This document shows, in pieces, positions 59,915 to 60,165 of a DNA stretch of 64,000 nt. The notes beneath the pieces were generated by a model. It had not been told where the DNA came from. It did no database searches and was given only the letters and a program-made list of their open reading frames with translations. The DNA comes from a virus, in IMG/VR virus record IMGVR_UViG_3300035670_000065, positions 47,993 to 111,992 of that record. The stretch is one strand, 5' to 3'. Position numbers and translations under genes: made by a program. Position 1 is the first letter of the stretch. Every line of letters starts with the position of its first letter.

Positions 59915-60165
59915 AGTAAAAGTATTCAAGACACGGGTTCGACTCCCGTCATTTCCAAGACTACGGGAATGTAACGGCTTCGATTGGGTATGACTAGCAA
60001 TGCCGGAGAATCGTCAGCTAAGACGTAAAAACAACGCATAATAAATGCAAACGATGAAAGATATAGCCTAGCTGCTTAAGTTAGGCGAAGGTTTCGGGAC
60101 TGTCCCTTCTTACCAATACAGTCCCATTTTGTTACTATCTTACTCGCCACTTAAGCTAATATATG
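59915..60165 (+). ncRNA. ssrA: Phage tmRNA, circularly permuted (two-piece)
   Basis: Coding piece: GGGAATG (59965) with D-like loop CGGCTTCGA, then a resume codon GCA and tag frame at 60047-60079 reading ANDERYSLAA-stop. The stop lies in a GCCTA/TAGGC hairpin, followed by pseudoknot GAAGG/CCTTC with GGGACTG/CAGTCCC. The 3' half lies upstream: T arm ACGGG-TTCGACT-CCCGT (59933-59949) and CATTTCC (59950-59956), which pairs with GGGAATG. P2 GTATTCAA/TTGGGTAT also pairs. Outer ends are approximate. Confidence 0.87.

What the first reader, a model, noticed from the sequence alone, without database searches (positions are those of the whole stretch)
59915..60165. Phage-encoded tmRNA with permuted gene structure
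The tag frame reads ANDERYSLAA, close to proteobacterial SsrA tags. The T arm and 3' acceptor strand lie upstream of the 5' acceptor strand with only 8 nt between, and both acceptor (7 bp) and P2 (8 bp) pair across the joint. Downstream of the tag there is no T arm. This is a two-piece tmRNA layout. Permuted tmRNAs are known from alpha- and some beta-proteobacteria and cyanobacteria.
Basis: partly seen in the sequence, partly recalled or inferred. Interest (0 to 1): 0.85.

Follow-up and report, generated by a model that had tools for sequence, protein, structure and literature searches.

The report
Permuted tmRNA gene in T5-like phage
A T5-like bacterial virus carries a scrambled-order gene for the RNA that frees stuck ribosomes; it is real and looks functional, but such genes are already known in many phages, and the more interesting detail is that a sister phage seems to have swapped out the tRNA-like half of the same gene.

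Summary
Window 59900-60125 (+) is a circularly permuted tmRNA gene. ARAGORN calls a permuted tmRNA with tag ANDERYSLAA; Rfam's tmRNA_permuted model matches at 93.7 bits, twice its cut-off, and the betaproteobacterial model at 84.1. All parts are present: 7-bp acceptor with G3-U70, 8-bp P2 across the joint, T arm, tag frame, P5 hairpin and a downstream pseudoknot. The phage is T5-like (112 kb record; terminase 47-48% to T5-like phages), with about 20 tRNA genes and no SmpB. Phage two-piece tmRNAs are already described (PMC9004378). So this is a new member of a known kind. A syntenic sister (L282) keeps 91-97% identity just upstream and 83% in the coding piece, yet its T arm, acceptor stem, D region and spacer are of another, alphaproteobacterial type. 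Five stem pairs changed on both sides and stayed paired. The permuted order makes the tRNA-like half one contiguous block, apparently exchanged as such. Cleavage, charging and tagging are inferred.

The parts
59868..60170 (+). whole permuted tmRNA gene as ARAGORN delimits it; the conserved part is about 59900-60125
   Evidence: boundaries from the blocks shared with L282
59900..59957 (+). acceptor piece (3' part of the mature RNA), ending in discriminator A59957; no CCA encoded
   Evidence: CCA check
59909..59913 (+). second paired element UGGCA, pairs with UGCCG 60001-60005
59922..59929 (+). P2 3' strand GUAUUCAA, pairs with 59984-59991
59933..59949 (+). T arm ACGGG-UUCGACU-CCCGU, canonical TPsiC-type loop
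59950..59956 (+). 3' acceptor strand CAUUUCC
59958..59964 (+). intervening segment AGACUAC (7 nt), expected to be removed on processing
59965..59971 (+). 5' acceptor strand GGGAAUG; G3-U70 wobble (alanine identity)
59972..59983 (+). D region UAACGGCUUCGA with the GG that matches a UUC T-loop
59984..59991 (+). P2 5' strand UUGGGUAU
60001..60005 (+). UGCCG, partner of 59909-59913
60012..60025 (+). CGUC...GACG hairpin before the tag
60047..60079 (+). tag reading frame GCA...UAA, ANDERYSLAA*
60066..60086 (+). P5 hairpin GCCUAGC...GUUAGGC with the stop codon in the loop
   Evidence: pairing; the MFE fold of the whole strand does not draw it exactly this way
60087..60125 (+). H-type pseudoknot: GAAGG/CCUUC (60087-60091/60105-60109) and GGGACUG/CAGUCCC (60096-60102/60119-60125)
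   Evidence: conserved in L282 with one two-sided change

Best explanation
This is a permuted ssrA (tmRNA) gene of the betaproteobacterial type, carried in the tRNA-gene array of a T5-like phage. One precursor transcript is made with the acceptor piece first. The 7-bp acceptor hairpin is opened by host tRNA-processing enzymes that remove the 7-nt spacer, and the two pieces stay together through the acceptor and P2 helices. The host CCA-adding enzyme completes the 3' end, since no CCA is encoded, and host AlaRS charges it through G3-U70. With host SmpB and EF-Tu it enters stalled ribosomes and adds ANDERYSLAA, a ClpXP-type degron. The phage gains ribosome rescue, or keeps it going, while it breaks down host RNA and translates heavily. 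Shown here: gene order, pairings, intact tag, conservation with compensatory change, absence of phage SmpB. Inferred: transcription, cutting, charging, tagging and benefit.
For: ARAGORN permuted call. Rfam permuted 93.7 bits and beta 84.1 bits. Without the upstream acceptor piece the permuted models fall to 42 bits, so the upstream arm belongs to the structure. The syntenic homologue L282, found by protein, has permuted score 98.2 and tag ANDSTFALAA. Three acceptor pairs, one P5 pair and one pseudoknot pair changed on both sides and stayed paired. A third T5-like record, L073, has a permuted tmRNA with tag ANDTQFALVA and a terminase 65% identical. Conservation between window and L282 falls off right after the pseudoknot and returns at the next gene. 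No SmpB in the record.
Against: The sequence gives no expression or processing evidence, and no promoter above shuffle level was found. The lack of an encoded CCA departs from 17 of 20 tRNA genes in the window and from L282 and L073, so charging depends on CCA addition. The single-strand fold is only modestly better than shuffles (z = -2.4); pseudoknots are not modelled there.
Confidence: 0.85

Rival explanations
1. A decoy or inhibitor: the phage RNA's main job is to bind host SmpB, AlaRS or EF-Tu and hold down host trans-translation, as proposed for the tRNA-like-domain-only tmRNA of mycobacteriophage DS6A.
For: A tmRNA-domain-only RNA inhibits endogenous tmRNA (reported in PMC4131195 and PMC11915505). 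The phage has no SmpB of its own, so any copy competes for the host's.
Against: The tag frame, P5 and pseudoknot, which a decoy would not need, are conserved between window and L282, with compensatory changes, and the tag keeps its ANDxxxxLAA form.
Confidence: 0.08
2. A decaying passenger copied from a host genome, without function in the phage.
For: Missing CCA; patchy distribution: 44 records with related terminases gave no match over cut-off, though most are fragments.
Against: All named pairs intact; compensatory changes; syntenic copy in a sister phage and a further permuted copy in another T5-like record.
Confidence: 0.06
3. A linear tmRNA wrongly read as permuted, or an unrelated tRNA T arm next to a tmRNA fragment.
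For: It lies in an array with about 20 tRNA genes, where stray T arms could occur.
Against: Acceptor and P2 both pair across the joint; permuted models win; no downstream T arm; the sister phage keeps the same order with co-changed acceptor strands.
Confidence: 0.01

Closest known systems
Betaproteobacterial permuted two-piece tmRNA (Rfam RF01850)
   Same: Gene order, T-loop UUCGANN with D-region GG, pseudoknot after the tag; 84.1 bits against a cut-off of 84.
   Different: Phage gene; spacer only 7 nt; no CCA; the model's last stem-loop is missing; just at the cut-off, so diverged.
Two-piece tmRNA of Methylophilales phage Melnitz and other phages (PMC9004378)
   Same: Phage-encoded permuted ssrA; 53 of 133 distinct phage tmRNA structures were two-piece.
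   Different: Melnitz is a myophage with an alphaproteobacterial-type tmRNA and a glutamine riboswitch; here a T5-like phage, beta type, inside a tRNA array, no riboswitch hit.
Permuted tmRNAs scored here in cultured phages (Stenotrophomonas phage BUCTxx99, Menderavirus Marzo, Xanthomonas phage Rb1, Acinetobacter phage BUCT628, cyanophage S-SSM7)
   Same: Permuted layout by ARAGORN.
   Different: No long DNA similarity to the window gene; several records do not annotate it, and S-SSM7 annotates hypothetical proteins across it.
Alphaproteobacterial permuted tmRNA (Rfam RF01849)
   Same: The sister locus L282 has this type's T-loop GGCAGUR and D-region AUAG.
   Different: The window has the UUC/GG type; the coding piece in both phages is beta-like.

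Membership tests
permuted (two-piece) tmRNA | acceptor piece (T arm, 3' acceptor strand) encoded upstream of the coding piece | tested here: met
permuted (two-piece) tmRNA | tRNA-like domain: 7-bp acceptor with G3-U70, T arm, P2 closing across the joint | tested here: met
permuted (two-piece) tmRNA | score over the Rfam RF04321 cut-off (47 bits) | tested here: met
   93.7 bits
permuted (two-piece) tmRNA | resume codon and open tag frame ending in an -AA degron | tested here: met
   ANDERYSLAA*
permuted (two-piece) tmRNA | mature RNA is two pieces held by base pairing | not testable with these tools
   needs northern blot or RNA-seq
permuted (two-piece) tmRNA | alanine charging and SmpB-dependent tagging | not testable with these tools
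   needs biochemistry
betaproteobacterial subtype (RF01850) | score over cut-off (84 bits) | tested here: met
   84.1 bits, barely; sister L282 scores 66.4, below the cut-off
standard (linear) tmRNA, RF00023 | T arm and 3' acceptor strand downstream of the tag | tested here: not met

The most novel reading that the evidence does not exclude
The permuted order puts T arm, both acceptor strands and D region side by side, so the whole tRNA-like domain can be exchanged in one short recombination; phages use this to swap alpha-type and beta-type tRNA-like halves onto the same coding piece, which a linear tmRNA gene could not do in one step. Window and L282 would be one such exchange: upstream 91% over 35 nt (97% over 30 nt), coding piece 83-84%, but domain 62% and spacer unrelated. 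L302/L218 looks similar. The T-loop/D-loop contact switches together (U55 with G18, or G55 with A18) in 43 of 44 copies picked by a motif outside the domain.
Probability: 0.45. Interest if true: 0.55.

Novelty: new member of a known kind. Interest (0 to 1): 0.36.

Why it matters
It adds T5-like phages to the groups seen to carry permuted tmRNA and gives paired sister loci in which the structure can be read from compensatory changes. The apparent exchange of the tRNA-like half suggests a consequence of permutation that can be tested: it turns a split domain into one contiguous module. It also shows that viral collections hold many permuted tmRNAs that annotation, and even ARAGORN, miss.

Tried and rejected
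Closer relatives of the window DNA: none in INPHARED by blastn and none useful in plasmids. Neighbour protein 61030-61497 gave no viral relative. The short 8-nt joint as a novelty: rejected, 27 of 177 surveyed permuted tmRNAs have spacers of 8 nt or less. The odd T-loop of L282 as a new elbow or a degenerate arm: rejected after the alphaproteobacterial consensus showed the same loop and D region. Host assignment through an exact tmRNA motif in 84,980 genomes: one irrelevant hit, so the host is not identified. The acceptor survey required 7/7 pairs, so it cannot be used as evidence for pairing; only L282, found by protein, counts. One exception to the U55/G18 rule (L251) shares a coding piece 100% identical to L275 and may be a recent recombinant or an assembly chimera.

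Full report
What is there. The window is bases 47993-111992 of a 112-kb viral record. Its terminase is 47-48% identical to those of T5-like Salmonella, Escherichia and Vibrio phages. The record has DNA polymerase A, NAD-dependent ligase, primase/helicase and a fused protease/major head protein, and a tRNA array of 20 ARAGORN tRNAs plus two more by Rfam. Inside that array, between tRNA-Ser (59163) and tRNA-Thr (60514), lies the feature.

Check of the observation. ARAGORN calls a permuted tmRNA, tag ANDERYSLAA, at 59868-60170. Rfam's tmRNA_permuted matches 59900-60079 end to end with 93.7 bits (cut-off 47), and beta_tmRNA matches 59860-60134 with 84.1 bits (cut-off 84). Reading order: second paired element (59909-59913), P2 3' strand (59922-59929), T arm (59933-59949), 3' acceptor strand (59950-59956), discriminator A, 7-nt spacer, 5' acceptor strand (59965-59971), D region, P2 5' strand (59984-59991), hairpin, tag (60047-60079), P5, pseudoknot ending at 60125. 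All named helices pair completely, and position 3-70 is G-U, the alanine identity pair. When the upstream acceptor piece is left out, the permuted models drop to 42 bits and no linear match with a downstream T arm appears.

Independent test of the structure. A search with the nearby TROVE protein (52608-54173) found one relative, L282, 76% identical, with the array in largely the same order. At the matching place L282 has a permuted tmRNA (98.2 bits) with tag ANDSTFALAA*, which ARAGORN missed. Against the window, three acceptor pairs, one P5 pair and one pseudoknot pair have changed on both sides and still pair, two more changed on one side and still pair, and only the outermost P5 pair is lost. 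Sequence similarity falls off just past the pseudoknot and returns in the next small open reading frame. L073, from another T5-like record (terminase 65% identical), also has a permuted tmRNA, tag ANDTQFALVA.

How it most likely works. Gene order and pairings are shown; the rest follows from what is known of two-piece tmRNA. The precursor folds so that the spacer caps the acceptor helix. Host tRNA-processing enzymes would remove the spacer, the CCA-adding enzyme would finish the 3' end, AlaRS would charge it, and host SmpB would bring it to stalled ribosomes; the phage has no SmpB. The missing CCA is unusual for this phage, since 17 of its 20 window tRNAs encode it, but 23 of 66 surveyed permuted tmRNAs with a UUC-type T-loop also lack it. 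Why the phage keeps it is inferred: stalled ribosomes should be frequent during RNA breakdown and heavy late translation. The DS6A-type decoy idea (PMC4131195) fits less well because the tag and pseudoknot are kept.

Comparison with what is known. The Melnitz paper (PMC9004378) counted two-piece tmRNAs in 53 of 133 distinct phage tmRNA structures, 50 of them from marine or aquatic phages. PMC11915505 lists 79 phage sequences among 97,179 tmRNAs. A pattern for the alpha-type T arm hit its limit too; all five loci then tested with Rfam, two from the earlier coding-motif scan and three from this one, were permuted tmRNAs. Cultured phages BUCTxx99, Marzo, Rb1, S-SSM7 and BUCT628 have them by ARAGORN. 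The find is therefore a new member of a known kind.

What is less expected. Between window and L282 the 30 nt just upstream of the T arm are 97% identical and the coding piece 84%, but the T arm, acceptor strands and D region are only 62% identical and the spacers (7 and 89 nt) are unrelated (one search gives 91% over 35 nt and 83%). For 54 same-type pairs with coding pieces 80-88% identical, the median for that block is 93% and the lowest 74%. The window has the UUC T-loop with GG in the D region; L282 has GGCAGUG with AUAG, the alphaproteobacterial type as the Rfam consensus shows. L302/L218 shows a similar break. Among 44 copies chosen by a motif in the coding piece, T-loop position 55 and D-loop position 18 switch together in 43. 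Because the permuted gene puts the whole tRNA-like domain in one stretch, a single short exchange can replace it. I give this reading 0.45: rapid divergence, sampling by the patterns used, and assembly chimeras are not excluded.

Noticed in passing
L282:17743-18056; L222:6189-6506; L246:9401-9698: Phage permuted tmRNAs with alpha-type T-loop GGCAGUR and D-region AUAG; in L282 and L222 the coding piece is beta-like, i.e. mosaic. L282's T stem seems to have 6 pairs.
   Followed up: partly
one search set, 44 loci between L203 and L281: T-loop position 55 and D-loop position 18 covary (U with G, G with A) in 43 of 44 permuted phage tmRNAs; only L251 departs.
   Followed up: partly
window 60252-60425: 57-codon open reading frame just downstream of the tmRNA, conserved in L282 (MEKLLEKYVENETKIATING... 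/ MDDKLIEKYVEDETKIATING...); too short for the ORF list.
   Followed up: no
window 60192-60225 and L073:562-600: Near-identical element CGGGTAATCAGGAGCACCTGAC.TGGGTAG, after the tmRNA in the window and just before it in L073; perhaps a shared promoter or spacer RNA of the tRNA arrays.
   Followed up: partly
window 52608-54173: TROVE/vWA (Ro60-like) RNA-binding protein inside the tRNA array; no Y RNA family hit in the window.
   Followed up: partly
window 61030-61497 and 31912-32571: HAD domain of 'Swiss Army Knife' RNA repair proteins and a polynucleotide-kinase-like protein: possible RNA repair set beside the tRNA array.
   Followed up: no
L282, L073, L222, L251 spacers: Long spacers (70-89 nt) closed by inverted repeats that extend the acceptor stem; L073's spacer holds a second T-arm-like hairpin (GGGGG-TTCGAGT-CCTCT).
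   Followed up: no
L251 and L275: Coding piece and spacer 100% identical but different acceptor pieces: a recent recombinant or an assembly chimera.
   Followed up: no
window 46929-47000 and 60672-60742: Two tRNAs found by Rfam but not by ARAGORN.
   Followed up: no
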